From NCBI RefSeq assembly GCF_003194585.1, contig NZ_QHKZ01000002.1, positions 434,001 through 498,000 of the forward strand: a DNA stretch of 64,000 nt, given 5' to 3'. The notes beneath the pieces are model-generated. The model did no database searches. It was not told the DNA's origin and was given only the letters and a program-made list of their open reading frames with translations. The DNA is from Nocardioides daejeonensis. GTDB lineage: Bacteria; Actinomycetota; Actinomycetes; Propionibacteriales; Nocardioidaceae. Numbering within the stretch: position 1 is the first letter of the stretch; every line of letters starts with the position of its first letter. Both the position numbers and the translations under genes were made by a program. This document shows positions 24,543-41,241 of this stretch, piece after piece.

Positions 24543-26063
24543 ATGACGAACCCTCGGAGCAACACCGTCGACTCGATCCTTCGCCGCAGTGCCGCACGTC
24601 AGCCCGACCGGGTCGCGCTGACCTTCGCGGACCGCGCCTGGACCTACGCGGAGTTGGACGCCGCGGCCAGCCGGGCGGCGGCGTACCTCCTCGGCCTGGG
24701 GCTGGCCAAGGGCGACCGGGTCGCGACCGTGGGGGCCAACTCCGACGCCTACCTGCTGGCATTCCTCGGCTGTGCCCGGGCCGGGCTGGTGCATGTGCCC
24801 GTCAACTACGCCCTCACCGGGCGGGAGCTCAGCTATCTGATCGGCGACGCCGGAGCTCGCGTGGCGCTCGTCGACCCAGAGCTGGAGGGTGCCGTCGAAG
24901 CAGTACGGGCCGACACCGCCCTCGAACAGGTCCTGCTGCTCCAGGGCGGCCCGGAGGCGGCGTTGGAGTCCTGGCGCTCCGGGGAGCTCCCGGTGCTCGA
25001 CGTCGAGGTCGCGGACACCGACCTGGTGCAGCTGCTCTACACCTCGGGCACCACGTCGGCCCCCAAGGGCGCCATGATGACCCACCGGGCACTGATGCAC
25101 GAGTACGTCTCCTCGGTGATCGCCCTCGACTTCGACGCCGACGACGCGCCGCTGCACTGCATGCCGCTCTACCACTCGGCGCAGATGCACGTCTTCCTCG
25201 TGCCCTACCTGATGGTGGGAGCGACGAACCACCTGCTCCCCCGCCCCGACGTGCCCGAGCTGCTCCGCCTGGTGGAGCAGAACCAGCACCGCGCGCTGTT
25301 CCTCGCGCCGACGGTCTGGGTGCCGTTGGCCAACCACCCGTCGTACCGACCCGAGGGGCTGGCGTCGCTGCGCAAGGCGTACTACGGGGCGTCGATCATG
25401 CCCGTGCCGGTGCGGGAACGGCTGGCGAAGGAGCTGCCCGACCTCGGCTTCTACAACTGCTTCGGACAGTCCGAGATCGGCCCGCTCGCGACGGTCCTGC
25501 GGCCCGAGGAGCACCAGGAGCGCCCGGACTCCTGCGGTCGCGCGGTGACCTTCGTGGAGATGCGTGTCGTCGACGAGCATGGCGCCGATGCCGAGGTGGG
25601 TACGCCGGGCGAGGTGCTCTATCGCTCGCCGCAGCTCTGCCTGGGCTACTGGAACAAGCCCGAGGCGACGGACGAGGCCTTCCGGGACGGTTGGTTCCAC
25701 TCCGGCGACATGGTGGTGCGCGACGCGGCCGGCTACATCACCGTCGTCGACCGGATCAAGGACGTCATCAACACCGGCGGTGTGCTGGTCGCCTCCCGCG
25801 AGGTCGAGGACGTGCTCTACACCCACGACGCGGTTGCCGAGGTCGCGGTGATCGCGACCCCCGACGAGAAGTGGATCGAGGCAGTCACCGCCGTGGTCGT
25901 GCTCAAGGAGGGAGCCGCGGCCACCGAGGAGGAGCTGATCGCCCACGCCCGCCAGTCGCTGGCGCCGTTCAAGCTGCCCAAGCGGGTGATCGCCGTCGCC
26001 GACCTCCCGCGCAACCAGAGCGGCAAGCTGCTGAAGCGCGAGCTCCGAGACCGCTTCAGCTAG
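24543..26063 (+). CDS. Acyl-CoA synthetase (FadD, AMP-forming)
   Basis: 506 aa adenylate-forming enzyme. The AMP motif is LLYTSGTTSAPKGAMMTHRAL, followed by NCFGQSEIGP, GWFHSGDMVVRDAAGYITVVDRIKD and the catalytic Lys in RNQSGKLLKREL. It should activate a medium or long-chain acid to acyl-CoA. ATG 24543 was chosen because TACCCT (24531-24536) ends six bases before it, a leaderless promoter. The longer frames upstream are shadows. It is only loosely similar to the ligase at 10.4 kb, so the two are likely for different substrates. Its 3' end overlaps the convergent kinase gene by 8 bases. Confidence 0.93.
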   Translation: MTNPRSNTVDSILRRSAARQPDRVALTFADRAWTYAELDAAASRAAAYLLGLGLAKGDRVATVGANSDAYLLAFLGCARAGLVHVPVNYALTGRELSYLIGDAGARVALVDPELEGAVEAVRADTALEQVLLLQGGPEAALESWRSGELPVLDVEVADTDLVQLLYTSGTTSAPKGAMMTHRALMHEYVSSVIALDFDADDAPLHCMPLYHSAQMHVFLVPYLMVGATNHLLPRPDVPELLRLVEQNQHRALFLAPTVWVPLANHPSYRPEGLASLRKAYYGASIMPVPVRERLAKELPDLGFYNCFGQSEIGPLATVLRPEEHQERPDSCGRAVTFVEMRVVDEHGADAEVGTPGEVLYRSPQLCLGYWNKPEATDEAFRDGWFHSGDMVVRDAAGYITVVDRIKDVINTGGVLVASREVEDVLYTHDAVAEVAVIATPDEKWIEAVTAVVVLKEGAAATEEELIAHARQSLAPFKLPKRVIAVADLPRNQSGKLLKRELRDRFS

Positions 26064-28065
26064 GAGCGCCGGGCGGCGGCAGCCGGAGCTCGAGGCGGCT
26101 GCCATTCCCGGAGTCGCCCGGGCCCCGCCGGAGCGAACCACCCAGCTCCTCGGCGCGCTCGCGCATGGAACGCAGGCCGATGCCCTCCGAGGTCTCCGCG
26201 GCGAAGCCGACGCCGTCGTCGGTCACCGTGAAGGTCGCGCCACCGTCGGCCCGCCGTCGCACCACGATCTCGCAATGGCGTGCCTGGGCGTGCCGGGTCA
26301 CGTTGAGCAGCGCCTCGCTTGCCATCTGGTAGATCGCCACCTGCGTGGCGGGCGCAAGATCCACCTGCGGCGCGGCGGAGACCGTCACCTCCAACTCCGC
26401 GCTGCGGAAGCGCCCCGCGAGAGCGGTGAGCGCGCTCTCCAGGTCGCCGTCGTCGAGCGCCAGTGGGAGCAGCGAGCGACTCAGCCGCCGTACCTCCTCC
26501 CCCTGGTGCAACAGTTCGCGCTCCAAGGCATCCAGCATCTCCTCGGAGGCCCTCGGATCGCGCTCCCGCAGCCCCCGGGCTCCGATCAGTCCGAGGCGGA
26601 TGCCGGCGAGCGCGGGGCCGAGGCCGTCGTGCAGGTCACGGCGCAGCATGCGCCGCTCCTCGTGACGCACACTCGCCACCCGACTCCGGGCACGTGTCAG
26701 CGCGGCCACCGACTGCTGCAGATCGATGGTCATCCCGACCAGCCCCGCCACCTCGGTCAGCATCCGCGTCGTGCGCTGATCGAGTTGCTCACCGGGACGG
26801 GGCCGGGCTACCAGCAGACCCACCTCGTGGCCCCGGCTGGTCAGCGTCACGACGACATCGTCTCCTTGGACCTCTGACCGTTCCTCCGGGCCGGACGGGT
26901 GGATCTGCACCTCCGCCAGCCGCAGGCTCCGGCACAGCGCCTCGGCGAGCCCCTCGATGTCGTAGTCATCGCCGGCCTCGGCGCTCCTCAGGAGCCGACC
27001 CGGGTCCGCGCCCGCTCCGTAGACGAGGCGGTCGACGCGACGTTGGACCAGGCGCCGCAGCGGCGTGGCCCCGAGGCCGACCAGACCGACGGCGAAGGCC
27101 AGCGTGACCTCCGACCGATCGGGCACCACCGCGGCAGCGAAGGCGATCAGCATCAGATAGGCGAGCGCGACCGTCACCGTCATCACGGCCCAGACGACGC
27201 CACGGTTGACCCGGGCGTCGACGCCCCACAACTGCTGGCCCAGGACGAGAACCAGCAGAGCCGCCGGCAGAAAGAGCTGAGCCAGCAGCAACAACGTGCC
27301 ACTGATCTCCGCGGCCGGGGCCGACCAGCCCTCCGGCACCGGCACCAGGAAGGCCGCCAGCGCGACCACCATCGCCGTATGACCGGCCAGCAGCCACCGG
27401 AGCCCGCGCTGCTGCGCCTTCGGCGCGCGACGCGTCCGGAGCAGCAGCCAGACTCCTTCAGCCACACCGAGCAGGGCGATCACACGGTCCGGCCAGTAGC
27501 CGAGCCGGACCCGTGCCGTCTGCCACCACTCCAGGTCAACGCCGAGCGGGTTGTGCGGCAGGCCCGCGACCACGGCCGTCAGGCCCTGCAAAGTGCCGAG
27601 CAGGATCGCAACGGCGGCCACGGTCACGACCGGCCAGCGGCGGCGCGCTCCGGGAAGCACCAGCAACGGGATGACGGCGATCGTGGCGTAGACCCCCGGC
27701 ACCCAGGCCCAGTACGGCAGGTAGAAGGCGAGTCCGTGTCCCGGCCATGCGAGGGCGGCGTACCCGGTGGCGAAGCCGGCAGCGCCACAGCCGAGCGCGG
27801 TCAGTGCCAGCAGCCAGACCACCGGGTGACGCGTGCGCGGCAGCATCATCACGACGACGATCCCGTAGACCACCGCGGTCACGACATCCATCACCCAGTT
27901 GGCGAGCTCCTCGGGAACGGTGCCGGCGATGAGGAGCCCGAGGACCGCGCCGGCAGCGAGCAGCCACGAGAGACCACCGATCAGCCAGGCCAGCGACCGC
28001 CAGGGTCGCCGCAGTCGCGAGTACGTCGGCGCGCTCGGCATGCTCACGACGTAGGAGCCACTCAC
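26056..28065 (-). CDS. Membrane sensor histidine kinase (NarL/DesK type, HisKA_3)
   Basis: 669 aa. The N-terminal half has about eight to nine membrane helices (residues about 25-335). A GAF-like linker (about 340-455) leads to the HisKA_3 helix SVRHEERRMLRRDLHDGLGPALAG, with the phosphorylated His near 480, and the HATPase domain (NVTRHAQA N-box, DDGVGF, GIGLRSMRERA). The signal is unknown. GTG 28065 overlaps the stop of the upstream SARP-receiver gene (GTGA), so kinase and partner are translated as a unit. The cytoplasmic half is closely similar to the kinase at 38.6 kb, which argues for an old duplication. Confidence 0.93.
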   Translation of the reverse strand: MSGSYVVSMPSAPTYSRLRRPWRSLAWLIGGLSWLLAAGAVLGLLIAGTVPEELANWVMDVVTAVVYGIVVVMMLPRTRHPVVWLLALTALGCGAAGFATGYAALAWPGHGLAFYLPYWAWVPGVYATIAVIPLLVLPGARRRWPVVTVAAVAILLGTLQGLTAVVAGLPHNPLGVDLEWWQTARVRLGYWPDRVIALLGVAEGVWLLLRTRRAPKAQQRGLRWLLAGHTAMVVALAAFLVPVPEGWSAPAAEISGTLLLLAQLFLPAALLVLVLGQQLWGVDARVNRGVVWAVMTVTVALAYLMLIAFAAAVVPDRSEVTLAFAVGLVGLGATPLRRLVQRRVDRLVYGAGADPGRLLRSAEAGDDYDIEGLAEALCRSLRLAEVQIHPSGPEERSEVQGDDVVVTLTSRGHEVGLLVARPRPGEQLDQRTTRMLTEVAGLVGMTIDLQQSVAALTRARSRVASVRHEERRMLRRDLHDGLGPALAGIRLGLIGARGLRERDPRASEEMLDALERELLHQGEEVRRLSRSLLPLALDDGDLESALTALAGRFRSAELEVTVSAAPQVDLAPATQVAIYQMASEALLNVTRHAQARHCEIVVRRRADGGATFTVTDDGVGFAAETSEGIGLRSMRERAEELGGSLRRGPGDSGNGSRLELRLPPPGAPS

Positions 28066-29306
28066 GGCGGCCCGGCCAGTCGGGAGCGTGCGGCGCGGGC
28101 GACGGCGGGGCCGATGATGAGCTCCCCGCGCGCCACCCCACGGATGGCGCGCAGCACGTCGTCGGCGTCTGCCGACTTCAGGAGGTAGCCGGAGGCGCCT
28201 GCGCTCAGCGCACCGGCCACGTGGCCGTCGTCCTCGTGCATCGTCATCACCAGAACCTTGAGCTCAGGGTGCGCCTCCAGCAGTTCACGGGTCAGGTCGA
28301 TTCCCGACTCCCCCGCCAGGTCGAGATCCATCAGGACGACCCCCACACCCCGTCCGACCAGCTCGCGGGCTGCGGCAGCGTCGCCGGCGGAGCCGACCAG
28401 CTCCAGGCCGTCGAGGGCACCGATCAAGCCAGCCATGCCCATCCGAAAGACTGGATGGTCGTCGACGATGCCGACCCGGAGCACACCGACGGCGCCGCCG
28501 CCGTGGGCGCTGACGAGCTGCTGCTGGAGGATGGCTGTCTCCAGCCCGCCCACCGCCGCACTCGCGTCGACGCCGAGCTCCTCGCGCAGCGTCTCGCGGA
28601 GCCGCCGCAGCGCGGCGAGGCCGTCGACCTGGCGCTCAGCACGCACCAGGGCGGCGGCGTAGAGCATCCACAGGCGTTCCCGGTGCGGATGCTCGGCGCA
28701 CTCCGCCTCAAGTCGTCGGGCGGCCTCCGCGGGGTCTCCGTCGTGCATGCGGATCAGCTCCCGCAGCTCGACCGCAGCCGTACGTACCTCCTTCAGCCGA
28801 ACTCGCTCCGCCATGACGCCCGGGTCGTCGCCCAGGTCGAGATAGGGCTCGTCGCGCCACGAGCCGATCGCCTCGTCGAGCCGGTCGGCGACCTCGCGCA
28901 GCGCGGGCTGCTCGGCCGCGGAGGCCAGCAGCCATGGGCGTTCCAGGTCCGAGCGGACAACGGTCGCCGCAGCGACCGCGGCCTCCAGACGACCGGCGTC
29001 GATCGCCTCCTCGGGTAGCCGCAACGTATACCCCAGCGCGGAGGTCTGGATCACCGTGCCTGCCCCGCGCGAGGGCCGGTCCGGCTCGAGCACCTTGCGC
29101 AGGCTGGAGACGTAGCCCTGCAGGGTCACCGCGTAGCTGGCAGGAGGCTGGTCGCCCCACAGCGCGTCGACCAGCCTCTCCAGGCTGACCGGCCGGCCCC
29201 GGTGCAGCGCGAGCGTTGCGAGGAGCCGGCGCGGCTTGGGCGCACCGACGTCGAGGAGCTGCTCCCCGACCTCGACCTCGAGCGGGCCGAGCACACGGAA
29301 TCTCAC
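28062..29306 (-). CDS. SARP-type DNA-binding/BTAD protein fused to a C-terminal receiver domain
   Basis: 414 aa. Residues 1-95 are an OmpR-like winged helix (VRFRVLGPLEVEVGEQLLDVG, GYVSSLRKVLE) and about 100-250 a BTAD helical domain (EPYLDLGDDP, RERLWMLYAAALVRAERQVDGLAALRRLRETLREELGVD), the two parts of a SARP regulator. From residue 275 a receiver domain follows, with acidic Asp282/283, phospho-acceptor Asp327 (LMDLDLAG), Thr355 and Lys377 all intact. It ends about 20 residues after the receiver with no LuxR helix-turn-helix. DNA binding must therefore come from the N-terminal winged helix and be switched by the C-terminal receiver. GTG 29306 was chosen over ATG 29330 because TAGCCT (29314-29319) ends seven bases before it and it matches the SARP N-terminus. 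It overlaps the kinase gene by four bases. Confidence 0.9.
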   Translation of the reverse strand: MRFRVLGPLEVEVGEQLLDVGAPKPRRLLATLALHRGRPVSLERLVDALWGDQPPASYAVTLQGYVSSLRKVLEPDRPSRGAGTVIQTSALGYTLRLPEEAIDAGRLEAAVAAATVVRSDLERPWLLASAAEQPALREVADRLDEAIGSWRDEPYLDLGDDPGVMAERVRLKEVRTAAVELRELIRMHDGDPAEAARRLEAECAEHPHRERLWMLYAAALVRAERQVDGLAALRRLRETLREELGVDASAAVGGLETAILQQQLVSAHGGGAVGVLRVGIVDDHPVFRMGMAGLIGALDGLELVGSAGDAAAARELVGRGVGVVLMDLDLAGESGIDLTRELLEAHPELKVLVMTMHEDDGHVAGALSAGASGYLLKSADADDVLRAIRGVARGELIIGPAVARAARSRLAGPP

Positions 29307-29405
29307 CCGCGCAAGGCTACTCAGATCCATGTCTGCACATCGTGAAGTTTGCAGAGATCCTGGGGCCGCTGCGCCTGGCACGAGATCCCCGTCGGGCTCC
29401 GCGGC

Positions 29406-30695
29406 TCAGTGCCCGATGACATCGGCCGGGTCGTAGGTCTCACGCACGCTTCGCAGAAGCCCGGCCGTCTCCTCAGGCCACGCTGTCGCGAAGGCGCTCG
29501 GCTGGTTGAGGGCGCCGACGAAGTTCGGCTGGAACCCTCCGCTCGCCCACGGCGCCATCGCCTTCGCCAGCCCTCCGACCGCGGCGGGCACCGCGTCGGC
29601 GAAGAGCTCGGGTACCGGCGCGCTGACCACGAAGAGCCCGTACGCCGCATCGCGACCGACGACAGCATCGGGACGTTTCGGCGGCTCGGCGAGACGGCCG
29701 CCGAGGCGGCGTACCTCGATCATCGCGAGCGGCGCCGCGGTCTGCGGCCCGGCCACCGCAAGCATCTTCCGGGCGGCCGTCGGGTCGAAGTCGCGCAGAA
29801 GCGCACCTGCCTCGAGCACCGGCATCGGGCGGACGGGATCGGCGTGGACCGCGCCGATCCCGGAGGCCGGGAGGACGCCGAGGGTGTCCAGCAGCGGTGA
29901 CGCGAGCGAGCGCAGCGGCGCGACGAGGGTGGCTGCCTCGTCCGCCCCGACGAGATCCAGCGGCACGGCGATCCGCAGATGCACGACGAAGCGGCCGCGC
30001 AGCGGTACCGGAACCGAGTCGAGGTCGGGCATGCGCACCAGCGCCGCGGAGGTGTTGACGTGCTCCGGGACCTGCGCGGACCAGGTCGCCCACGTGGTGA
30101 GGACTGTCTCCGCATCGCCGGCGTCGAAGAAGAGGCCACCGCCGTAGAAGGTGCTCAACGGCAGGAGGTCGATCTCGACGGCGGTCACCACGCCGGGCAC
30201 GTGCTTGCCACCGAGCAGGGCCCGGAACAGCTCCGGGTGCTCGGCCTCCGAGGCCGTCACGATCTCGCCGGTGCCGGTGACCACCTCGGCGGATCGCACA
30301 TAGTCCGTGGCCCAGCCGTAGCTGCGGCCGAGGGGGCTCAACCCGCCGCCAAGCAGGAAGCCGATCACTCCGACCGCAGGGGCGGAGCCCGCCAGCGGTG
30401 TCAGCCCGTGCGGCGCCACAGCGACGATCACCTCCTGGAAGCGGCAGCCCGCCCCGATGCGGGCACTCGACCGCTCGCCATCGATCGTGACCGTGTCCAG
30501 GCCACAGGTGAGGAGGGCGGTGCCGCCCTCGATGGCGTGCGTCCAGCCGTGGCCGGTGCCGACAGGGTGAAGACGACGGCCGGCGGCTGCGGCAGCGCGG
30601 ACTGCGCGGACGACCTCCGCAGAGGTACGCGGCTCGAGCACCTCGTCGGGTCGGTGCTGGTGGGCGAGGTTGAAGACGGGAAGTGTCGTGGACAT
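29406..30695 (-). CDS. FAD-dependent oxidoreductase (BBE-like, FAD_binding_4)
   Basis: 429 aa. The PCMH-type FAD domain fills the N-terminal half: LHPVGTGHGWTHA carries the His that is often linked to FAD, and VGVIGFLLGGGLSPLGRSYGWATDYVRSAEVVTGTGEIVTA is the classic second FAD segment. The C-terminal NPSAF and YDPADVIGH are close to the berberine-bridge end (YDP.N.F). It should oxidise an alcohol, sugar or alkaloid-like substrate with oxygen. No signal peptide, so it is cytoplasmic. The start has AAAGGAG seven bases upstream. The usual BBE Cys for a second covalent bond is replaced (GWATDYV), so only a single covalent bond to FAD is likely. Confidence 0.88.
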   Translation of the reverse strand: MSTTLPVFNLAHQHRPDEVLEPRTSAEVVRAVRAAAAAGRRLHPVGTGHGWTHAIEGGTALLTCGLDTVTIDGERSSARIGAGCRFQEVIVAVAPHGLTPLAGSAPAVGVIGFLLGGGLSPLGRSYGWATDYVRSAEVVTGTGEIVTASEAEHPELFRALLGGKHVPGVVTAVEIDLLPLSTFYGGGLFFDAGDAETVLTTWATWSAQVPEHVNTSAALVRMPDLDSVPVPLRGRFVVHLRIAVPLDLVGADEAATLVAPLRSLASPLLDTLGVLPASGIGAVHADPVRPMPVLEAGALLRDFDPTAARKMLAVAGPQTAAPLAMIEVRRLGGRLAEPPKRPDAVVGRDAAYGLFVVSAPVPELFADAVPAAVGGLAKAMAPWASGGFQPNFVGALNQPSAFATAWPEETAGLLRSVRETYDPADVIGH

Positions 30696-33265: not shown

Positions 33266-33305
33266 CGGCTGAGGCACCGTGCACACCACGCGGGCGCCTC
33301 AGCCG
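33266..33305. terminator. Hairpin between convergent genes
   Basis: CGGCTGAGGC (33266-33275) pairs exactly with GCCTCAGCCG (33296-33305) across a 20-base loop. It sits between the propeller stop and the last Tad gene, whose stop codon lies within the second arm, so it could end both transcripts. Confidence 0.6.
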
Positions 33306-33760
33306 GCGACCCGGACCTCGGCGGCGCCGGTCGCCCCGACCTGCCCGCTCGTCAGGCCGCCGACGGTGACGGGCAGGTCGAGCGGCGCCCGGAGCGCGAC
33401 GTTCACGGCGTCGCCATGCACCGAGACCCGCACCCGTAGCCCGGGGTAGCGCTCCATCGCGCCAGTGGCGCGCAGGTACTCGTGTACGGCGGCCACCGCC
33501 AGGTCGGTCGCCAACGGGACGACCCCGTCGCCGACACCGTGCTCGAAGACCGCCGCGCCGCGCACCTCGTTGGCGCCCGCCAGGGCGGCGCCATCCGCGA
33601 GGCTGTCCAGCGACTGCCGCTGCAGGTAGGCCGCCGACGCGTCGACCACCACCCCGCAGAGCAGAAGCAGCACGGCGGCGAACCCGATGATCAACGGCGT
33701 GACCGTGCCGCGCTCACTCGCACGTCGCGGTGGCGCGCCGAACCGACCGGTGCTGCTCAT
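33299..33760 (-). CDS. Tad pilus minor protein (TadG/Rv3655c-like, pilus assembly)
   Basis: 153 aa. ERGTVTPLIIGFAAVLLLLCGVVVDASAAYLQRQSLDSLADGAALAGA is the TadG/TadE_like (DUF2134-like) membrane segment with the Flp-type ERG motif at its start. The rest is outside the membrane. Its ATG overlaps the stop of the TadE gene before it (ATGA). It is the last gene of the Tad operon. Tad machines build thin adhesive pili; such proteins are thought to be minor pilins or assembly parts. Confidence 0.82.
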   Translation of the reverse strand: MSSTGRFGAPPRRASERGTVTPLIIGFAAVLLLLCGVVVDASAAYLQRQSLDSLADGAALAGANEVRGAAVFEHGVGDGVVPLATDLAVAAVHEYLRATGAMERYPGLRVRVSVHGDAVNVALRAPLDLPVTVGGLTSGQVGATGAAEVRVAG

Positions 33761-34200
33761 CGGCGCGCCTCGACGTAACGGCCGGTGGGGACGCGGTGCA
33801 CCGACTCGACGCGGAGGCTCGAACGACCACCGCCGAGCACCTCGGGCATCAACGGCAGCGCAACCTGGGTGCTGATGCGGACCGTGGCGACCGAACCGGG
33901 CGAGAGGCAGGGATGCGGAGCGCAGTCGATGGTGAGCTCGAACGGACCCTCGATCCCCTGGTCGCTGAGAGCGACGCGTGCTGCCTGCTGCGCGCGCTCG
34001 CGGCCCTGCGCCTCGTCCTCGGCCAACGTGAAGGCCCGACCGGCGGCCCGCGCCGCCGCGCTTGCCCCGAACGCGCCGCGCTGCACGTCGAAGACAGAGA
34101 TCAACAGGTAGACCAGCGGCACGAGCAGCAGGACGCCGAGCCACACGAACTCCAGGACGGCGTTGCCGGCCTCGCCCCGTGTCCGACGTTCCCGGCTCAC
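33757..34200 (-). CDS. TadE-like pilus protein
   Basis: 147 aa. RGEAGNAVLEFVWLGVLLLVPLVYLLISVFDVQRGAFGASAAARAAGRAF is the TadE signature: a Glu five or six residues into a single N-terminal helix, which may be processed as a pseudopilin. GTG 34200 overlaps the stop of the preceding gene (GTGA); the longer frame upstream is not supported. Two Cys (DCAPHPC) occur outside the helix. Confidence 0.85.
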   Translation of the reverse strand: MSRERRTRGEAGNAVLEFVWLGVLLLVPLVYLLISVFDVQRGAFGASAAARAAGRAFTLAEDEAQGRERAQQAARVALSDQGIEGPFELTIDCAPHPCLSPGSVATVRISTQVALPLMPEVLGGGRSSLRVESVHRVPTGRYVEARR

Positions 34201-34592
34201 GGGCGCTCCCGGATCGCGTGGCCCGTGACCACCAGCTCGACGTCCGGACCCCACAGGCCGAGGGTCGGCACCTCCGCACGGATGGTGACCTCGACGGCCG
34301 GTGCGCCCTCGATCCGCGCGAGCCGCGCTCGTACGTCCCGCGCGAACCGAGCGCTCAGCGCGCCACGGATCTGGTCGCGGGCATAGCGCTCACCGACCCC
34401 GGGCGTCGCGTCCGCCACCGCTGCCCGACGGGCTGCCTCGGAAGCGGCCGCCGTCAAGGTGTTGCGCACATGGAGGACCAGCGCCAGCTGCATCACGCCC
34501 AGCACCAGCGGCACCAGGATCACGACCACCAGGACGAAGTCGACGATCGCCGCGCCGCCCTCCGGATCAGCCCGTGACCTTCGCCAGTGCAT
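34197..34592 (-). CDS. TadE-like pilus protein
   Basis: 131 aa. PEGGAAIVDFVLVVVILVPLVLGVMQLALVLHVRNTLTAAASEAARRAA is a TadE-type membrane segment with an Asp in place of the more usual Glu after the cleavage-like Gly. ATG 34592 lies inside the end of the small pilin-like gene upstream (26-base overlap in another frame). It is followed by a second, different TadE-like gene, so the operon codes for two TadE-type minor pilins. Confidence 0.83.
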   Translation of the reverse strand: MHWRRSRADPEGGAAIVDFVLVVVILVPLVLGVMQLALVLHVRNTLTAAASEAARRAAVADATPGVGERYARDQIRGALSARFARDVRARLARIEGAPAVEVTIRAEVPTLGLWGPDVELVVTGHAIRERP

Positions 34593-34752
34593 CGCTGAGC
34601 AACGCCGTGAGCCGGCCGTCGGCGAACTCCCAGAGGCCACCGACCAGACCCGCGGTCATGACCGTGACCAGCACCCATCCTGGGACGTCGCCCCGCTCGT
34701 CGTCGGGCGGCGAGGAGAACCTCCACCAGACCGTCGCTATCTTGCGCATCAT
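34567..34752 (-). CDS. Short Flp-pilin-like protein (DUF4244 type)
   Basis: 61 aa. DERGDVPGWVLVTVMTAGLVGGLWEFADGRL fits the small pilin-like protein usually found between tadC and tadE in actinobacteria. The Gly before DVPGW could be a prepilin cleavage site. ATG 34752 (or ATG 34749) has AAGGAAG upstream. It is the best candidate in this operon for the major Tad/Flp pilin, though the Glu at position 5 of the mature protein, usual in Flp, is not clear. Confidence 0.78.
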   Translation of the reverse strand: MMRKIATVWWRFSSPPDDERGDVPGWVLVTVMTAGLVGGLWEFADGRLTALLSDALAKVTG

Positions 34753-34786
34753 CCCGAGACTTCCTTTCCCCGTCTGCCCGTCACGC

Positions 34787-35698
34787 TCATGCGGTGACGA
34801 ACGAAAGCCCCACCACGCCCGGCCAGAAGGCGACCAGGACGGTGGCAGGGAGAACCAGAAAGACGACCGGCACCATCATCAGCACCTCACGACGTGCCCC
34901 GGACTCGATCAGCTGGCGCCTCATCGCGTCGCGCACATCGCCCGCCTGCGCATGGAGCACGTCGGCCAAGGGGGTGCCACGCTCGACAGCCACGGCGATG
35001 GCGTCAGCGAACCGGCGGACCTCGGGCACACCGGTGCGCGCGGCAAGCGCGTCGAACGCCTGCGCCACCGGGGTCCCGGTGCGCACCTGCGCCAGCACCG
35101 CTGCCAGTTCGACGGCGAGCTCGCCGCGACTGCACCGCACCACACGGTCGAGAGCAGCGGTGGTGCCCTCACCTGCAGCGACGCTCAGTGCCAACAGTTC
35201 CGAGATCGCCGGCAGCTCCGCCAGGATGCGGCGTTCGCGGCGACGCACCTGGGCGGTGAGGCGGTTGTCGCGCAGCAACACCCCGAACACGAACGCCGCG
35301 CTGCAGAGGAACAGTGCTCCCAGCACGGAGGCCTCGCCCGTGGTTGCGCGCAGGATCGAGAGCGCCGCGACCGACGCGAACGCCACGAGTCCCCACGCGA
35401 CCTGCTCCACCCGGAGGTCGTGCACGCTTCGTTCTCCCCCCAACCGGGCGAGGCGGCGGCGTACCGAGACGGAGCCACCCACCATCCGGTCCACGACGTC
35501 GGCCGCGCGGCGCAGCAGGTCGGCTCGCGCGTCGGACGGAGCGCCTGGTGCGCCTCCCCACCCAGGAAGGTCGCGCAAGTAGGGCAGCACCCGCGTCGCC
35601 GGGTCGAGCCGGCGGGAGGACCCGAGCGACCGAACAGCCAGCAACAGTCCGGTCGCGCAGAGCCCACCGACCGCGCCGCCCACCAGTGCCGCGCTCAC
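34787..35698 (-). CDS. Tad secretion inner-membrane protein TadC
   Basis: 303 aa GspF-family platform protein. The T2SSF domain lies at about 140-290 (RRILAELPAISELLALSVAAGEGTTAALDRV and TPVAQAFDALAARTGVPEVRRFADAIAVAVERGTPLADVL), with a C-terminal pair of helices (VLMMVPVVFLVLPATVLVAFWPGVVGLS). It partners TadB to form the membrane platform for pilus assembly. GTG 35698 overlaps the TadB stop codon (GTGA). Confidence 0.88.
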   Translation of the reverse strand: MSAALVGGAVGGLCATGLLLAVRSLGSSRRLDPATRVLPYLRDLPGWGGAPGAPSDARADLLRRAADVVDRMVGGSVSVRRRLARLGGERSVHDLRVEQVAWGLVAFASVAALSILRATTGEASVLGALFLCSAAFVFGVLLRDNRLTAQVRRRERRILAELPAISELLALSVAAGEGTTAALDRVVRCSRGELAVELAAVLAQVRTGTPVAQAFDALAARTGVPEVRRFADAIAVAVERGTPLADVLHAQAGDVRDAMRRQLIESGARREVLMMVPVVFLVLPATVLVAFWPGVVGLSFVTA

Positions 35699-36549
35699 CC
35701 GAGCACCCGTCGCTCTGCAGGCAGCCGCCCGATCCGCATCATCACGGCATAGGCGACGACGCAGCAACCGGCCGCCAGGAGCAGCACGACCGCGCCACCA
35801 GGAGTGCCGAATGCTCGCACCGCATCGGTCTGCGCGCTCATCATCAGCAGGATCGCCCAGGGCGCGGAGACGGCCAGCCGAGCAGCGTTCACCGCCCATG
35901 CCTGGCGGGACTCCAGCTCCGCACGGATCCGCTCGTCGTCACGCAGGTGGCCCGAGAGGTTGCGGAGCAAGCGACCGAGATCTCCGCCTCCGACTGCTCG
36001 GGCCACCCGCAGGCCCTCGACGACCCGGTCGCCCACCGGGTCCGACAACTGCTCCTTGAGTGCATCGAGCGCCACGTCGAAACGGCCGGTGGTCTGGTAG
36101 TGTCGGGCAAAGCCTGCGAAGACCGGTCGGAGCGACTCCGGACCCCGATCGGCCAACGCAGCAAGGGATTCCGGCAACGAGAGTCCGGCACGGACGCCGG
36201 AGGCGAGGCTGTCGACCACCTCCGGCCAGACCTGCGCGAACTCACGTTGGCGACGTCGAGCCCGGCCTGAGACCAACGCGACCGGCAGGCTCCCGGCGAT
36301 GGCCGCGAAGACAGCGGCTACCGGCGGCGTCGACGTGACCGCCAGCATCACGACGAACGCCAGCAGAGCAAGCACCAGGCAGGCGCATCCCAGGGCCCGC
36401 GGGCTGAACCGCCCGAGGCCCGCACGGGCGAGCAGGTCGGCAGTGCGCGACGGTCGCGGCCCTGCCGAGCGGGACGATCGCGGCACCGAGCAGGAGAGCC
36501 AGATCAGGAGCAGGCCCGCCCCAGCCACCAGACCGACAGCGGCACCCAT
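35695..36549 (-). CDS. Tad secretion inner-membrane protein TadB
   Basis: 284 aa GspF-family protein. Two N-terminal helices, a T2SSF domain (RRRQREFAQVWPEVVDSLASGVRAGLSLPESLAALADRGPE, and DPVGDRVVEGLRVARAVGGGDLGRLLRNLSGHL), then two C-terminal helices. ATG 36549 shares one base with the stop of the ATPase gene (TGATG). TadB and TadC together form the inner-membrane platform moved by the TadA ATPase. Confidence 0.88.
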   Translation of the reverse strand: MGAAVGLVAGAGLLLIWLSCSVPRSSRSAGPRPSRTADLLARAGLGRFSPRALGCACLVLALLAFVVMLAVTSTPPVAAVFAAIAGSLPVALVSGRARRRQREFAQVWPEVVDSLASGVRAGLSLPESLAALADRGPESLRPVFAGFARHYQTTGRFDVALDALKEQLSDPVGDRVVEGLRVARAVGGGDLGRLLRNLSGHLRDDERIRAELESRQAWAVNAARLAVSAPWAILLMMSAQTDAVRAFGTPGGAVVLLLAAGCCVVAYAVMMRIGRLPAERRVLG

Positions 36550-37796
36550 CAACGGCCGCCGTTGAGCAACGCGTGCACGTCGATGCCGACCCGCGAGAAC
36601 TGTTCGAGCCGCGGGGGCAGGCCCGCGCGGCGTACCAGCTCCTCGTGCGGACGTTCGAAGATCGCCTCGGTCTCGACCACTCCTGACTCCGCACGGCCGG
36701 GAACGCCGACGATCTCCATCACGCGCCTCGCGCCCGCCGGGTCGAGCGCCAGATGGACGACAAGGTCCACGCTGGCAGCGACCGTCGGCTGCACGAACGC
36801 GGCCGAGATGTTCTCCCCCGCCAGCAACGGAAGGGTGCACATCTTCACCAGCGCCTCACGGGCGGAGTTGGCATGCAGCGTGCACATGCCCGGCAGTCCG
36901 GCGTTCAGAGCCAACAGCAGGTCAAGACACTCCTCGGAGCGAACCTCTCCGACGATGATCCGGCTCGGCCGCATCCGCAGGCTCTCTTTGACCAGGTCAC
37001 GCAACCGCACCTCGCCAGTGCCCTCCAGGCCCGCCTGCCTGGTCTGGAGTGGAACCCAGTCGGGATGCGAGAACCTCAGCTCGAAGACCTCCTCCGCGGA
37101 GATCACCCGGTCCCCACCGGGGATCGCCGCGGCGAGGCAGTTCAGCATGGTCGTCTTGCCGCTCTGCGTCCCGCCCGTTACGAGGATGTTGAGACCGGCC
37201 CGCACCGAGGCGCTCAGGAAGGACGCCGCCGCCTCGGTCAGCGTGCCGAGCTCGACCAACGTGTCGAGCCGTGCGGCACGCATCGTGTGCTTGCGGATGT
37301 TCACGGCCGTGAAGCCACGGGAGATGCCGGCCAGCGCGACGTGTAACCGGTGCCCCTCCGGCAGGAGAGCATCGACGAACGGCTGCGAGAGATCGACGCG
37401 CCGCCCGCTCGACTTGAGCATCCTCTCGACCAGCTCGTCGACCTCCTCGGCGGTGAGCACCGTGTTGGTGAGCTCGTGCCTGCCTGCGCGGGCGACGAAG
37501 ACGCGGCTCGGCTCGTTGATCCACACCTCCTCCACGGTCGGATCGTCCAGATAGGGCTGCAAGGACCCGAACCCGGCGACTCGGGCCATCAGCTCCACCA
37601 CCATGGCGGCAGGGTCCGACAGCGAGGCGACCTGACCGGTCAGGCTCAGTCGGTCGTGGTCGGCGACCACCTGCTCCACGATGCGGCGTACCGCGTCGAC
37701 CTGCGCCTGGGGGTCGAGCCGCTCGCGGCGTACCTGCTCGCGCACCCGCGCGTCGAGCAGCACCACCTCTGCGGGCGCGCCGACAGACAGCGACAT
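36549..37796 (-). CDS. Tad/CpaF secretion ATPase TadA
   Basis: 415 aa. Walker A is GGTQSGKTTML, the Asp box is around ISAEEVFELRF, Walker B is RIIVGEVRSEECLDLLLALNAG and the His box is GMCTLHANSAREAL. The protein powers assembly of Tad pili. ATG 37796 has AAAGGA nine bases upstream; the longer frame upstream is not coding. It is the first gene of the operon. The usual actinobacterial partner tadZ (cpaE/ssd) is not upstream; a 214-base spacer and a divergent lipoprotein gene come next. Confidence 0.94.
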   Translation of the reverse strand: MSLSVGAPAEVVLLDARVREQVRRERLDPQAQVDAVRRIVEQVVADHDRLSLTGQVASLSDPAAMVVELMARVAGFGSLQPYLDDPTVEEVWINEPSRVFVARAGRHELTNTVLTAEEVDELVERMLKSSGRRVDLSQPFVDALLPEGHRLHVALAGISRGFTAVNIRKHTMRAARLDTLVELGTLTEAAASFLSASVRAGLNILVTGGTQSGKTTMLNCLAAAIPGGDRVISAEEVFELRFSHPDWVPLQTRQAGLEGTGEVRLRDLVKESLRMRPSRIIVGEVRSEECLDLLLALNAGLPGMCTLHANSAREALVKMCTLPLLAGENISAAFVQPTVAASVDLVVHLALDPAGARRVMEIVGVPGRAESGVVETEAIFERPHEELVRRAGLPPRLEQFSRVGIDVHALLNGGR

Positions 37797-38010
37797 GGAC
37801 CGATCCTTTCCCGAGAATGCGGATCCTGCCGTCAGTTGTATGTGGAGTGGGTGCGTTTGTCCATGGTTGCGCCGCCTTCTGTGGACAGACGGGAATCTGC
37901 CCGCGGTCGTCGACGCCCCCTCGCCCGGCCGAATGAGGACACCTGCCCCTGTCTCCCGGGCCGCACGCAGGGCGACGCTGGCGCCTCCGAAACACGAGAG
38001 GACCACTGTC

Positions 38011-38535
38011 ATGAAGTCACTGCGGGTCGTAGCCGCCAGCGCCGTCGTCGTCACGGCGCTCTTCACCGGAGCATGCGACGACGACTCCAAGGACGCCAAG
38101 AAGGACGCTGCCCCGGCCACCACCGACGCGGGCGACGCCGACGATCTGGACGGTCTCGACACCCAGCAGAACAGCGATGAGCGGCTCGAGACCGGACTCC
38201 CCGAGGAATGCTTGGAGCCGTTCCCCTTCGCCTTCGGCGAACCGGACCTGGGCGAGGTCGAGATGCTCCCCGAGGAGTGGCCCGAGCCACCCGTCGAGGC
38301 GGTGCTGTGCAGCACCTCCGGCACCGTCGGCGAGTCGATCGAGACCGCGGACTACGCCACCGACGCCGACCCCGAGGAGGTGCTGGCGGCGTACCTCGAG
38401 GCCCTGGCCGCCTACTCTCCCGAGCGCACCACGGTCGCCGAGCTCGGCCGCGACGTGATCGACGGGCAGGCCGGCGACGTGTGGTTCCGTGTCGACGCCG
38501 AGCCGGGCAGGTTCACCCTCACGTTCAGTCACTGA
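38011..38535 (+). CDS. Exported acidic lipoprotein, unknown function
   Basis: 174 aa. Lipobox LFTGAC with Cys22, then a long Asp/Lys/Ala linker. The mature domain is strongly acidic and has two Cys (EECLEPF, VLCSTSG). No family was recognised. ATG 38011 has AGAGGA nine bases upstream. It is divergent from the Tad operon and 28 bases before the second histidine kinase gene, so it could be part of that sensing unit, but this is a guess. Confidence 0.8.
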   Translation: MKSLRVVAASAVVVTALFTGACDDDSKDAKKDAAPATTDAGDADDLDGLDTQQNSDERLETGLPEECLEPFPFAFGEPDLGEVEMLPEEWPEPPVEAVLCSTSGTVGESIETADYATDADPEEVLAAYLEALAAYSPERTTVAELGRDVIDGQAGDVWFRVDAEPGRFTLTFSH

Positions 38536-38563
38536 TGTCGGCCCTCTCCGACACCATCGCGCC

Positions 38564-40588
38564 ATGGCGAACCCGCACTCCGCAGCGCGACCAGGCTGGG
38601 CTGTCATCGTCGGCAGCCTGGCCTGGGTGCTCTGCCTCGGGGCGCTCGCGCTCCTGCTGCTGAGCGAGGATCCCTTCCCTGCCGACGCGCACTACTACCA
38701 GAGCCGGGAGTACTTCACGCTGCATGTCGTCACCGGAATCACCTCCGGCACCGCGGCCACGATCGTCCTGGCCCGCAGCATCCACCCGGCAGGGGTGGTC
38801 GCGGCGGTCATCGCCCTCTGCTTCGCCACCTCCGCGTTCAGCCTCGGCTGGGCGTTCGTCGCGGCGGAGCGAGGCTGGCCGGGCGTCGGCCTCGCCGTGC
38901 ACGGGTTCGCCGGCGCCTCCCAGCCCGGCGTCTTCGTGGCGATGGCCGTGCTGCCCTGGGTGATCCGGCGCGACCCACCCGCGGACGGGCCGCGACGCGC
39001 GGTGATCGGGATCGGGACGTGCGCCGTGCTGCTCCTCACCCTCGTCGCCGTCACACAGCAGCAGGACGGCGCACCCACCAACCCGTTGGCCGGCATGCCC
39101 GGCAGCCCCGCACCACCGGTGTGGACGATCCTCTCGCTCTTCGTGACCTGTCTGGTGGTCGGTGCTCTCGGCCTCGCCGACCTCGTGCTCGGCTGGCGGC
39201 GCGGGCACCAGGGCGACGGCCGGGCTCTGGCCTTCCTCGTCGCAGGCACCGCGGTGCTGCTCGCCACCATCGGGCTGGTGCAGTTCCTGCCCGCGCACCC
39301 GGTGTGGGCCGTGCTGCCCGTCCCCTTGCTCTTCCTCGGCCAGACGATCGTCTCCCTCTCCGTCGTGGTGCTCACCCTCGGCACCTGGGATCTCGACTCG
39401 GGGCGCGGCGTACCGCGCGCTGCCACGGGGGCGCTGCTGGCCGGCCTCGCCGCTCTGCTCTACCTGCTCCTCGTGACCGCCGCCGAGCACCTCCTCGGCG
39501 TCGACCCCGTTCCGGCCGGCCTGGGCGCCGTCCTCGTACTCACCCTGGTGCTGCATCCACTGCGCCATTCACTGCAGCGCTGGGTCGACCACCTGCTGCT
39601 CGGCGCCGCCGCCGAGCCGACGGCACTCGTGGCCAGCGTCGGCCGCCGACTCAGCGAGCACACCGCCGACGAGGTCCTCCCCCACCTCGCGGACAACCTC
39701 CGGAGCAGCCTGCGCCTGGGCACCGTCGAGATCGCGCCGTACGCCGGAGCCCCGGTCCGCTCCCAGGCCGCGGACAACACGGATCTCCCCGCCACAGGCT
39801 CCGAGGAGCATGCGGTGCCGCTCGTCATCGGCTCCCGCGCCGTCGGCGACCTCCGGATCCGGCCGCGTCCCGGACGGACCGTCGCGCCGGCCACCCTGGA
39901 CGCGTTGGCCCAGAGCGCCGCGCTGGTCGCGGCAGCGGTGGATCTGGCCGCCACCAACCAGCGGCTGCGCGACGCCTCCAGCCGCCTCGTCGAGGTCCGC
40001 CACGAGGAGCGGCGCATGCTGCGCCGCGAGCTCCACGACGGTCTCGGGCCGGCACTCGCCGGCGTCGCCCTCGGCCTGGCGGCTGCCCAACGGCGGATCG
40101 CACACGACCCGGGAGGCACCGCCGGGCTGTTGGAGGAGCTCCGCGAGGAGGTCACCGGACGCATCGACGACGTGCGCACCCTGGCGCGCGCCGTGCTGCC
40201 ACCGGCACTCGACGACGGCGACCTTGCCGCGGCACTCGACACGCTGGCAACGCGCTTCCGCGGCGCAGGCATGAGAGTCGAGGTGCGATGTGGAGCAGCC
40301 GATCTGGCGACGCCCACCCAGGTCGCCCTCTACCAGGTCACTGCCGAGGCCCTGCTCAACGCCCACCGCCACGGTCGGGCGCGAACGGTGGTCGTCGACG
40401 TGGGCCGGTCGCTCGACGGACTGGTGCTGGAGATCACCGACGACGGGGTCGGCATCGACACGAACTCGAGCTCGACCGGCGTCGGCCTGCAATCGATGCG
40501 CGAGCGTGCCGACGCTCTCTCCGCCACCCTGACCGTCGGCCCCAACGCCCCGGGGCCAGGATCCTTCGTGAGGATGCACCTGCCATGA
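38564..40588 (+). CDS. Membrane sensor histidine kinase (NarL/DesK type, HisKA_3)
   Basis: 674 aa. About nine membrane helices fill residues 12-335. A GAF-like linker leads to RHEERRMLRRELHDGLGPALAG with the phosphorylated His near 480, and then the HATPase domain (NAHRHGRA, DDGVGIDT, GVGLQSMRERAD). The cytoplasmic half resembles the kinase at 26-28 kb almost residue by residue around the His, but the membrane half is different, so it should sense another signal. The ATG 38564 has no strong ribosome-binding site. Its stop overlaps the start of the response regulator gene (ATGA). Confidence 0.92.
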   Translation: MANPHSAARPGWAVIVGSLAWVLCLGALALLLLSEDPFPADAHYYQSREYFTLHVVTGITSGTAATIVLARSIHPAGVVAAVIALCFATSAFSLGWAFVAAERGWPGVGLAVHGFAGASQPGVFVAMAVLPWVIRRDPPADGPRRAVIGIGTCAVLLLTLVAVTQQQDGAPTNPLAGMPGSPAPPVWTILSLFVTCLVVGALGLADLVLGWRRGHQGDGRALAFLVAGTAVLLATIGLVQFLPAHPVWAVLPVPLLFLGQTIVSLSVVVLTLGTWDLDSGRGVPRAATGALLAGLAALLYLLLVTAAEHLLGVDPVPAGLGAVLVLTLVLHPLRHSLQRWVDHLLLGAAAEPTALVASVGRRLSEHTADEVLPHLADNLRSSLRLGTVEIAPYAGAPVRSQAADNTDLPATGSEEHAVPLVIGSRAVGDLRIRPRPGRTVAPATLDALAQSAALVAAAVDLAATNQRLRDASSRLVEVRHEERRMLRRELHDGLGPALAGVALGLAAAQRRIAHDPGGTAGLLEELREEVTGRIDDVRTLARAVLPPALDDGDLAAALDTLATRFRGAGMRVEVRCGAADLATPTQVALYQVTAEALLNAHRHGRARTVVVDVGRSLDGLVLEITDDGVGIDTNSSSTGVGLQSMRERADALSATLTVGPNAPGPGSFVRMHLP

Positions 40589-41241
40589 CAGCACCCGAGA
40601 TCCGCGTCGTCGTCGTCGACGACCACCCGGTCTTCCGGATCGGCCTCAGCGCCCTGGTCGACGAGCTGCCCGGCATGCGGGTTGTGGGCCAAGCAAGCAG
40701 CCAGGAGGAGGCGGTCGAGGTCACCCTGGGCCTTGCCCCCGACGTCGTGGTGATGGACCTCGACCTCGGGCCAGGCTCCGGCGCCGACGCCACCCGGGAC
40801 CTGCTGGCCGCCCGGCCCGGGACGGGCGTGCTGGTGCTGACCATGTTCGGCGACGACGACGCGCTCTTCGCTGCTGTTCGCGCAGGCGCTCGGGGCTACC
40901 TGCTCAAGGGCGCTGAGCCGGCGGAGCTGGAGCGCGCCCTGCGCGCCGTCGCCGACGGCGCGGTGATGCTGGGCCCGCAGGTCGCGGCCCGCGCGGTCTC
41001 CTACCTGACCGGCGCGCAGGGGGTGCGGACGGGCCCGTTCGCCGAGCTCACCGACCGGGAGCGGGACGTCCTCGAGCTCTTGGCACGCGGGCACGACAAC
41101 GCCACGATCGCCCGCCGCCTCGTGGTGACCAGCAAGACGGTGCGCAACTACGTCTACGCCATCAGCACCAAGCTGGGCGTGCCGGACCGCTCCGCCCTGA
41201 TCGTCAAGGCCCGGGACGCGGGCATCGGCGTACAGCCTTGA
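40585..41241 (+). CDS. NarL/LuxR-family response regulator
   Basis: 218 aa. Receiver domain with Asp pair in VVVDDHPVF, phospho-acceptor Asp in VVVMDLDLGPGSG, Thr in LVLTMFGDD and Lys in GYLLKGAEP, followed by a LuxR-type helix-turn-helix (LTDRERDVLELLARGHDNATIARRLVVTSKTVRNYVYAISTKLGV). It is the partner of the kinase with which its ATG overlaps. The receiver is alike in sequence to that of the SARP-receiver fusion at 28 kb (VDDHPVFR, GASGYLLK), which supports a shared origin of the two systems. Confidence 0.94.
   Translation: MTAPEIRVVVVDDHPVFRIGLSALVDELPGMRVVGQASSQEEAVEVTLGLAPDVVVMDLDLGPGSGADATRDLLAARPGTGVLVLTMFGDDDALFAAVRAGARGYLLKGAEPAELERALRAVADGAVMLGPQVAARAVSYLTGAQGVRTGPFAELTDRERDVLELLARGHDNATIARRLVVTSKTVRNYVYAISTKLGVPDRSALIVKARDAGIGVQP

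What the first reader, a model, noticed from the sequence alone, without database searches (positions are those of the whole stretch)
26056..29306. Two-component system with a SARP-type activator fused to a receiver
The protein at 28062-29306 joins a winged-helix plus BTAD (SARP) N-terminus to an intact C-terminal receiver (Asp282/283, Asp327, Thr355, Lys377). Its start codon is leaderless and it overlaps a membrane histidine kinase gene by four bases. SARP proteins normally lack receivers, and NarL-type receivers normally lead to a LuxR helix-turn-helix, which is absent here. The kinase would therefore control a SARP-type DNA-binding domain directly. Seen: domain motifs and overlap. Known: SARP/BTAD and HisKA_3 families. 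Inferred: phosphorylation switches DNA binding.
Basis: partly seen in the sequence, partly recalled or inferred. Interest (0 to 1): 0.78.

Follow-up and report, generated by a model that had tools for sequence, protein, structure and literature searches.

The report
Kinase-controlled SARP activator from domain swap
In a group of soil actinobacteria a standard sensor-kinase pathway has had its usual DNA-binding part replaced by the activator domain of antibiotic-type (SARP) regulators, so a membrane sensor probably switches a SARP directly; similar fusions probably arose three separate times.

Summary
The CDS at 28062-29306 (-) encodes winged helix + BTAD (SARP) + an intact C-terminal NarL-type receiver. 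It overlaps a HisKA_3 membrane kinase gene by four bases, and no LuxR helix-turn-helix follows. It is not an artefact: nine species of one genus carry it, one full-length copy each. Receiver acceptor residues, the GTGA/ATGA overlap and a TANNNT-N7-RTG leaderless-type start are conserved in 9 of 9. Related kinases elsewhere are paired with ordinary receiver-LuxR regulators (46 of 46 paired rows kinase-first; fusions 9 of 9 regulator-first), so this is an output-domain swap inside an existing two-component family. In one species the SARP part differs (AU p = 0.00016) under the same receiver and kinase. Two further kinds of SARP with a receiver behind it exist in other actinobacterial families.

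Most likely mechanism, inferred: phosphorylation dimerises the receiver and so places two SARP domains side by side on 11-bp direct repeats. Phosphotransfer, binding sites and signal are untested. Verdict: a real new variant of a known kind, of moderate interest.

The parts
28062..29306 (-). SARP-receiver fusion CDS (wHTH-BTAD-REC), GTG start, 414 aa
29028..29240 (-). winged-helix DNA-binding domain (Trans_reg_C match, residues 23-93)
   Evidence: model residues 1-270 superpose on AfsR 8k60_I (Z 23.4) and 1-268 on EmbR 2fez (Z 23.4)
28527..28919 (-). BTAD transcriptional activation domain (residues 130-260)
   Evidence: 4.2e-23
28143..28472 (-). receiver domain (residues 279-388); D282, D283, D327, T355, K377
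   Evidence: VraR receiver 7ve6 Z 23.6
28062..28142 (-). end of the receiver and short helix (400-410) that in relatives leads to the LuxR HTH; here the gene stops
28062..28065 (-). GTGA overlap of regulator stop and kinase start
   Evidence: 9 of 9 orthologues GTGA or ATGA
26056..28065 (-). membrane histidine kinase, 669 aa: membrane helices, GAF-like segment (by eye on the model), HisKA_3, HATPase_c
26461..26658 (-). HisKA_3 dimerisation/phosphoacceptor domain (H479)
   Evidence: H479 an invariant column of 32 aligned kinases
26074..26343 (-). HATPase_c ATP-binding domain (N588, D616, G618, G620)
29314..29319 (-). TAGCCT, -10-like element 7 nt upstream of the GTG start (leaderless-type promoter)
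   Evidence: TANNNT-N7-RTG in 9 of 9 orthologues; transcription start not mapped
29406..30695 (-). FAD-dependent oxidase gene upstream, same strand; also a neighbour in at least 4 of the 8 other fusion loci

Best explanation
This is a two-component system whose response regulator had its output part exchanged. Shown by trees and gene layout: kinase and receiver belong to an actinobacterial family whose normal regulator is receiver + LuxR HTH; in one Nocardioides/Pimelobacter group the receiver lost the HTH, came to lie in front of the kinase gene and became the C-terminus of a SARP that groups with AfsR-like proteins, nearly all of the same bacterial family. Inferred: the membrane kinase autophosphorylates at H479 and passes phosphate to D327; the phosphorylated receiver dimerises, as receivers of the VraR/LiaR type do (recalled), and this holds two SARP domains side by side on two 11-bp direct repeats near a -35 region, where BTAD recruits sigma region 4 and the alpha C-terminal domain as in AfsR. 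AfsR's SARP is monomeric in solution and dimerises only on DNA (passage of PMC10936776), so a phospho-switched dimeriser is the simplest use of a receiver here.
For: Intact domains and acceptor residues, invariant in 9 of 9. One full-length fusion per genome in 9 of 9 genomes; at least 9 of 341 family genomes have it. Four-base overlap 9 of 9. Nine fusions form one clade in the kinase tree (100/100) and in the receiver trees (100/98; 98/98), among receiver-LuxR systems. Gene order: fusions regulator-kinase, 46 of 46 same-strand receiver-LuxR rows kinase-regulator. SARP part lies in a clade of AfsR-like proteins, 34 of its 36 other rows from the same family. Model with pLDDT 93.8 matching AfsR/EmbR and VraR/LiaR. 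AfsR RNA-polymerase contacts R173, L243, L247, L263 identical in 15 of 15 aligned SARP-receiver proteins, E246 as E/D (contacts from passages of PMC10936776). Different SARP part in G182 under the same receiver/kinase line.
Against: No phosphotransfer, dimerisation or DNA-binding data. No repeat at exactly 11-bp spacing was found at the promoter of the fusion gene in 8 of 9 orthologues, the window included (with a -10 element); a looser scan gave 6-of-7 pairs at spacings 10, 12, 21 or 22 in four of these eight. Of four AfsR residues whose change weakened activation, only R173 is kept in all: R59 is H or E in the five window-type rows, D71 is D in the window but varies in the others, E76 is D. 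The base-reading residues T88 and R92 differ in the window type, so the target sequence cannot be predicted. pTM of 0.73 does not fix the domain arrangement.
Confidence: 0.62

Rival explanations
1. The receiver works as a lid: unphosphorylated it masks the SARP dimer or RNA-polymerase surface, and phosphorylation releases it, as the C-terminal domains of AfsR inhibit its SARP. Control is by relief of inhibition, not by receiver dimerisation.
For: In AfsR the NOD and TPR domains inhibit the SARP and ATP relieves it (abstract and passages of PMC10936776). The SARP-receiver linker is short in 8 of 9 orthologues, which allows contact.
Against: G182 has a linker about 50 residues longer between the same two kinds of domain (466 against 414-420 aa), which fits a tethered dimeriser better than a precise lid. 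The nearest solved receivers are of the VraR/LiaR/DesR type, which dimerise (recalled).
Confidence: 0.25
2. The receiver is no longer phosphorylated by the neighbouring kinase and serves as a scaffold or ligand-binding part, as in atypical response regulators.
For: None found in the sequence.
Against: D282, D283, D327, T355, K377 invariant in 9 of 9; kinase H479, N588, D616, G618, G620 are invariant columns of 32 aligned kinases; overlap kept in 9 of 9.
Confidence: 0.08
3. An ordinary member of the already known receiver + SARP response regulators (COG3947).
For: Same two modules; that class is known.
Against: COG3947 members have the receiver at the N-terminus and SARP at the C-terminus (passage of PMC3564903); here the order is reversed, and the receiver groups with receiver-LuxR regulators.
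Confidence: 0.05

Closest known systems
COG3947, 'SAPR' response regulators (receiver-wHTH-BTAD)
   Same: receiver plus SARP in one protein
   Different: receiver is N-terminal there, C-terminal here; here the receiver is NarL-type and groups with receiver-LuxR regulators
EmbR of Mycobacterium tuberculosis (wHTH-BTAD-FHA; 2fez)
   Same: same SARP core (252 residues superposed, Z 23.4) followed by one small C-terminal phospho-signalling domain
   Different: EmbR's FHA serves Ser/Thr kinases (recalled); here the C-terminal domain is a receiver next to a histidine kinase
AfsR of Streptomyces coelicolor (wHTH-BTAD-NOD-TPR)
   Same: SARP core, 36% identity over 247 residues, Z 23.4; regulation by C-terminal domains
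   Different: STAND ATPase/TPR and Ser/Thr phosphorylation in AfsR (passages of PMC10936776); receiver and presumed His-Asp relay here
NarL/FixJ-type two-component systems (e.g. the window's own 38489-41241)
   Same: related kinase (40% identity); receiver 61% identical to that of the Mumia receiver-LuxR regulator
   Different: they end in a LuxR HTH and are kinase-first; here SARP replaces it and the order is reversed
SARP-receiver-LuxR proteins of f20 (Nonomuraea and relatives) and SARP-receiver proteins of f21/f16
   Same: SARP first, receiver after it, kinase gene adjacent in the loci examined
   Different: receivers fall outside the window's clade; f20 keeps a LuxR HTH; in f21 the kinase examined (L131) is a hybrid HisKA kinase with Hpt

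Membership tests
SARP (AfsR/SARP) activators | N-terminal OmpR-type winged helix followed by BTAD | tested here: met
   PF00486 1.6e-10 and PF03704 4.2e-23, both over cut-off; AfsR and EmbR structural matches
SARP (AfsR/SARP) activators | RNA-polymerase-contacting residues of AfsR kept | tested here: inconclusive
   R173, L243, L247, L263 identical in 15 of 15, E246 E/D; in the five window-type rows R59 is H or E, D71 varies, E76 is D
SARP (AfsR/SARP) activators | binds 11-bp direct repeats at a -35 region | tested here: inconclusive
   perfect 8-bp repeat at 11-bp spacing in the G182 promoter only; none at that spacing at the other 8 fusion promoters; binding itself not testable
Response regulators | receiver with DD, D, T/S, K | tested here: met
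Response regulators | phosphorylation by a cognate histidine kinase | not testable with these tools
   only adjacency, overlap and joint ancestry
NarL/FixJ (LuxR-type) response regulators | C-terminal LuxR/GerE helix-turn-helix | tested here: not met
   no GerE match, gene ends after receiver
COG3947 SAPR response regulators | receiver at N-terminus, SARP at C-terminus | tested here: not met
   order reversed (against the description in PMC3564903)
EmbR-type SARP | C-terminal FHA domain | tested here: not met
   receiver instead
HisKA_3 histidine kinases | HisKA_3 + HATPase_c with H, N and G boxes | tested here: met

The most novel reading that the evidence does not exclude
Actinobacteria have repeatedly built 'two-component SARPs' by placing a SARP in front of a receiver, and the receiver takes over the job that DNA normally does for SARPs, pairing two protomers. 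The SARP part is exchangeable: in G182 the same kinase-receiver line drives a different SARP, so a fixed signal was re-addressed to a new set of promoters in one step.
Probability: 0.5. Interest if true: 0.68.

Novelty: new variant of a known kind. Interest (0 to 1): 0.52.

Why it matters
[quoted passage not shown] Here a sensor kinase would switch one directly. The nine orthologues, one of them with a different SARP part, form a ready test of how output domains are swapped without losing signalling, and a template for building kinase-controlled SARPs.

Tried and rejected
Assembly or frameshift artefact: rejected, nine genomes have the same single frame. Chance ORF: rejected by domain scores and conservation. 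Plasmid-borne relatives: of 219 plasmid records with a match none covers 80% of the query in one place. One origin for all SARP-receivers: not supported. In a 52-row receiver tree the nine window-type receivers sit with 11 receiver-LuxR rows (100/95), while the f20 and f21/f16 receivers lie outside on long branches; the tree holds no receiver-LuxR relatives of the f20 type, so f20 and f21/f16 being separate from each other is less sure. Holding all nine SARP parts as one clade: rejected, AU p 0.00016; long rows are flagged in that output. Autoregulation of the window gene by SARP repeats: no repeat at 11-bp spacing found (looser pairs at other spacings in four relatives). Operator-like CGACTKGGAGC pairs near the fusion loci and two Mumia-type loci: 23 rows, whose shuffled control used a narrower filter than the observed count; recounted with the same filter, 12 observed against 16, 8, 11, 21 and 11 in shuffles, so the set is at chance level; only the G182 pair is close (0 and 3 mismatches). 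A G182 operator shared with its five nearest SARP relatives: not seen (0 of 5), although 17 of 33 distinct AfsR-like genes have ACT(T/G)(T/G/C)G pairs at 11 bp upstream. All operator results are post hoc. Fold-search rows that are absent are no evidence. The phylum-level search (396 genomes) listed no further full-length fusion, but only about 150 best rows are shown, so others may be missed; the same limit holds.

Rows dropped: before the kinase/receiver trees I left out 16 loci by name (four duplicates L035-L038 and 12 more distant or redundant ones) and kinase pieces under 500 aa; 50 kinases and 45 receivers remained. Of the 46 receiver-LuxR rows, two (L050) are pieces of one kinase; pairing needed the same strand and under 1500 nt. 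L053 had no kinase because its contig begins there. The BTAD tree took 75 rows, 10 identical ones removed, one best row per locus; the f20 locus L124 did not pass its filter. The AfsR contact check used alignment A4, which holds 5 of the 9 window-type fusions.

Mistakes: eight BTAD loci were given on the wrong strand; that alignment (A2) was dropped and redone as A3. My neighbour-gene caller is naive and reports some antisense ORFs; neighbour counts are lower bounds.

Full report
WHAT IS THERE. The frame at 28062-29306 (-) is one gene of 414 codons with a GTG start. Pfam finds Trans_reg_C, BTAD and Response_reg in that order, all above cut-off, and no LuxR HTH. The kinase gene at 26056-28065 starts on the regulator's stop codon (GTGA); GTGA or ATGA is present in 9 of 9. 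The kinase has HisKA_3 and HATPase_c, eight hydropathy peaks, and a model with membrane helices, a GAF-like segment (by eye), a long DHp helix and an ATP-binding domain (mean pLDDT 82.5, pTM 0.58).

START CODON. At the homologous codon all nine genes read TANNNT, 7 nt, RTG. This is the layout of a leaderless actinobacterial promoter (recalled). No transcription start has been mapped. The alternative ATG eight codons upstream is a start codon in 2 of 9.

DISTRIBUTION. In 341 genomes of the family, at least 9 (the window's included) have one frame covering both parts; all are in the same genus (listing limited to E <= 1e-30 and the best rows). Named ones are Pimelobacter simplex ATCC 6946, Nocardioides daeguensis, Nocardioides sp. 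SLBN-35 and J54. Each of the nine genomes has one full-length match. The window's genome has four BTAD matches in all.

ORIGIN. The nearest receivers outside the group (Mumia, Knoellia, Brevibacterium, Oerskovia, Streptomyces, Ilumatobacter) are ordinary receiver-LuxR proteins. All of these but L053, whose contig begins there, lie beside a kinase related to this one, at 31-38% identity where the match is near full length (L044 and L050 matched in part only). Of 70 rows, recounted: 46 of 46 receiver-LuxR pairs are kinase-regulator; 13 of 13 fusion rows (9 distinct loci) are regulator-kinase; six rows belong to the f20 type (four kinase-first, two regulator-first, the regulator being flanked on both sides in two loci); five kinases had no paired receiver. 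In maximum-likelihood trees the nine fusions form one clade among receiver-LuxR systems: kinases 100/100 (50 rows), receivers 100/98 (45 rows), and 98/98 in a wider receiver tree of 52 rows. The fusion's receiver ends about where the relatives go on into the LuxR linker. So the output part was replaced, and the gene order changed with it.

SARP PART. In a tree of 65 SARP domains the eight fusions other than G182 form one clade (100/99), inside a clade of long AfsR-like proteins of which 34 of 36 other rows are from the same family. G182's SARP part lies elsewhere in that clade; forcing all nine together is rejected (AU p 0.00016). Yet its receiver and kinase fall inside the fusion clade, with G217 outside them, and its linker is about 50 residues longer. 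Either the SARP part was exchanged, or the same receiver-kinase line was fused twice.

OTHER KINDS. A class-level profile search of 394 genomes showed SARP-receiver proteins of two more types. In f20, SARP + receiver + a weak but above-cut-off LuxR HTH (GerE 3e-6 in the two scanned) sits beside kinase genes related to the window's, or between two of them in L126 and L127 (HisKA_3 checked in L126). 32 of 120 genomes of that family have it full length, and 2 more have both halves as separate matches. Nonomuraea gerenzanensis has one at 73% identity over 99% of the query. In f21 and f16, SARP + CheY-like receiver + a tail that looks like a coiled coil overlaps by four bases a large downstream gene (4 of 4 loci examined); in L131, the one scanned, this is a kinase with HAMP, GAF, HisKA, HATPase_c, two receivers and Hpt. 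8 of 35 genomes of f21 have it full length, and 1 more partly. In the 52-row receiver tree the three kinds are three clades; the window type sits with receiver-LuxR rows, the other two lie outside.

MECHANISM. The model (mean pLDDT 93.8, pTM 0.73) superposes on AfsR 8k60 (247 residues, Z 23.4) and EmbR 2fez (252 residues, Z 23.4) with its SARP part and on VraR 7ve6 (135 residues, Z 23.6) with its receiver. AfsR's SARP is monomeric in solution, dimerises side by side on two 11-bp direct repeats centred at -29.5, and engages sigma region 4 and the alpha C-terminal domain (abstract and passages of PMC10936776). Mapped onto 15 SARP-receiver proteins (5 window type, 4 f20, 6 f21/f16), AfsR's W74, P79, R94, R173, L243, L247 and L263 are identical in all, R240 in 14 of 15, E246 is E or D. 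R59 is kept only in the six f21/f16 rows; D71 in 11 of 15 (window included); E76 is D in the window type and mixed elsewhere; the base reader R92 is kept only in the four f20 rows and T88 in none. I infer SARP-like activation at a different sequence, with receiver phosphorylation providing the dimer. That last step is not shown.

OPERATOR LEAD. G182 has a perfect 8-bp repeat at 11-bp spacing at -38 to -20 of its putative start (0 of 2000 shuffles; best of the other eight 1 to 4 of 8). Of 222,808 bases scanned on both strands, only this site and one other fit repeat + TANNNT at that spacing. On the other strand it reads CGACTGGGAGC-CGACTGGGGCT, like the repeats upstream of 17 of 33 AfsR-like genes, though not of its five nearest SARP relatives. 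Looser matches to that unit around the fusion loci are at chance level. So it may serve the divergent neighbour as well or instead.

CONTEXT. Around the fusion loci an FAD-dependent oxidase, a secreted propeller-like protein and a hemerythrin-like protein recur (5, 6 and 6 of 9 loci with the naive caller). PD40 is matched in two of the propeller-like proteins scanned, not in the window's own. They are candidate targets only.

LITERATURE. Receiver-first SARP regulators are known (COG3947; one passage of PMC3564903; passages of PMC7046781). A survey of gene clusters counted BTAD among response regulators at 0.6%; the passages I saw do not describe the layout (PMC10663231). Passages of a SARP review list small, medium and large SARPs, and the word receiver does not occur in its text (PMC10972967). 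Passages of PMC12692060 and PMC3018481 added nothing on receivers in SARPs. Full-text searches for such a fusion gave no description (most hits seen as listings only); the library holds open-licence papers only.

VERDICT. Real, conserved and a new variant of a known kind.

Noticed in passing
window 38489-41241 (+): A related two-component system of the ordinary kind lies about 9 kb away: HisKA_3 kinase (40% identical to the fusion's kinase) and receiver-LuxR regulator (about 40585-41241).
   Followed up: yes
L124-L127 (f20 genomes), L159 Nonomuraea gerenzanensis: SARP + receiver + LuxR HTH in one protein, beside or between kinase genes; two DNA-binding domains in one regulator. Full length in 32 of 120 genomes of that family.
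   Followed up: partly
L128-L133 (f21 and f16 genomes): SARP + CheY-like receiver overlapping by four bases a large downstream gene (4 of 4 loci examined); in L131 this is a HAMP/GAF/HisKA hybrid kinase with Hpt. Permease- and urease-like genes lie close in some (by eye).
   Followed up: partly
L014-L034, L098-L123, upstream of AfsR-like SARP genes: 17 of 33 distinct genes carry ACT(T/G)(T/G/C)G pairs at 11-bp spacing within 260 nt upstream, in some three in a row (CGACTTGGAGC): likely operators of these AfsR-like proteins. No shuffled control was run for this count.
   Followed up: partly
window 33299-38324 (-): A run of genes that look like a Tad-type pilus/secretion cluster (TadE-like, membrane proteins, TadA-type ATPase at 36549-38324), judged by eye only.
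   Followed up: no
NZ_LT559118.1: An 11.85 Mb Nonomuraea gerenzanensis record is filed as a plasmid in the plasmid collection; it is of chromosome size.
   Followed up: no
L139 (G212), L153 (G171): Kinases of the same family with no receiver gene of this family found beside them on their strand.
   Followed up: no
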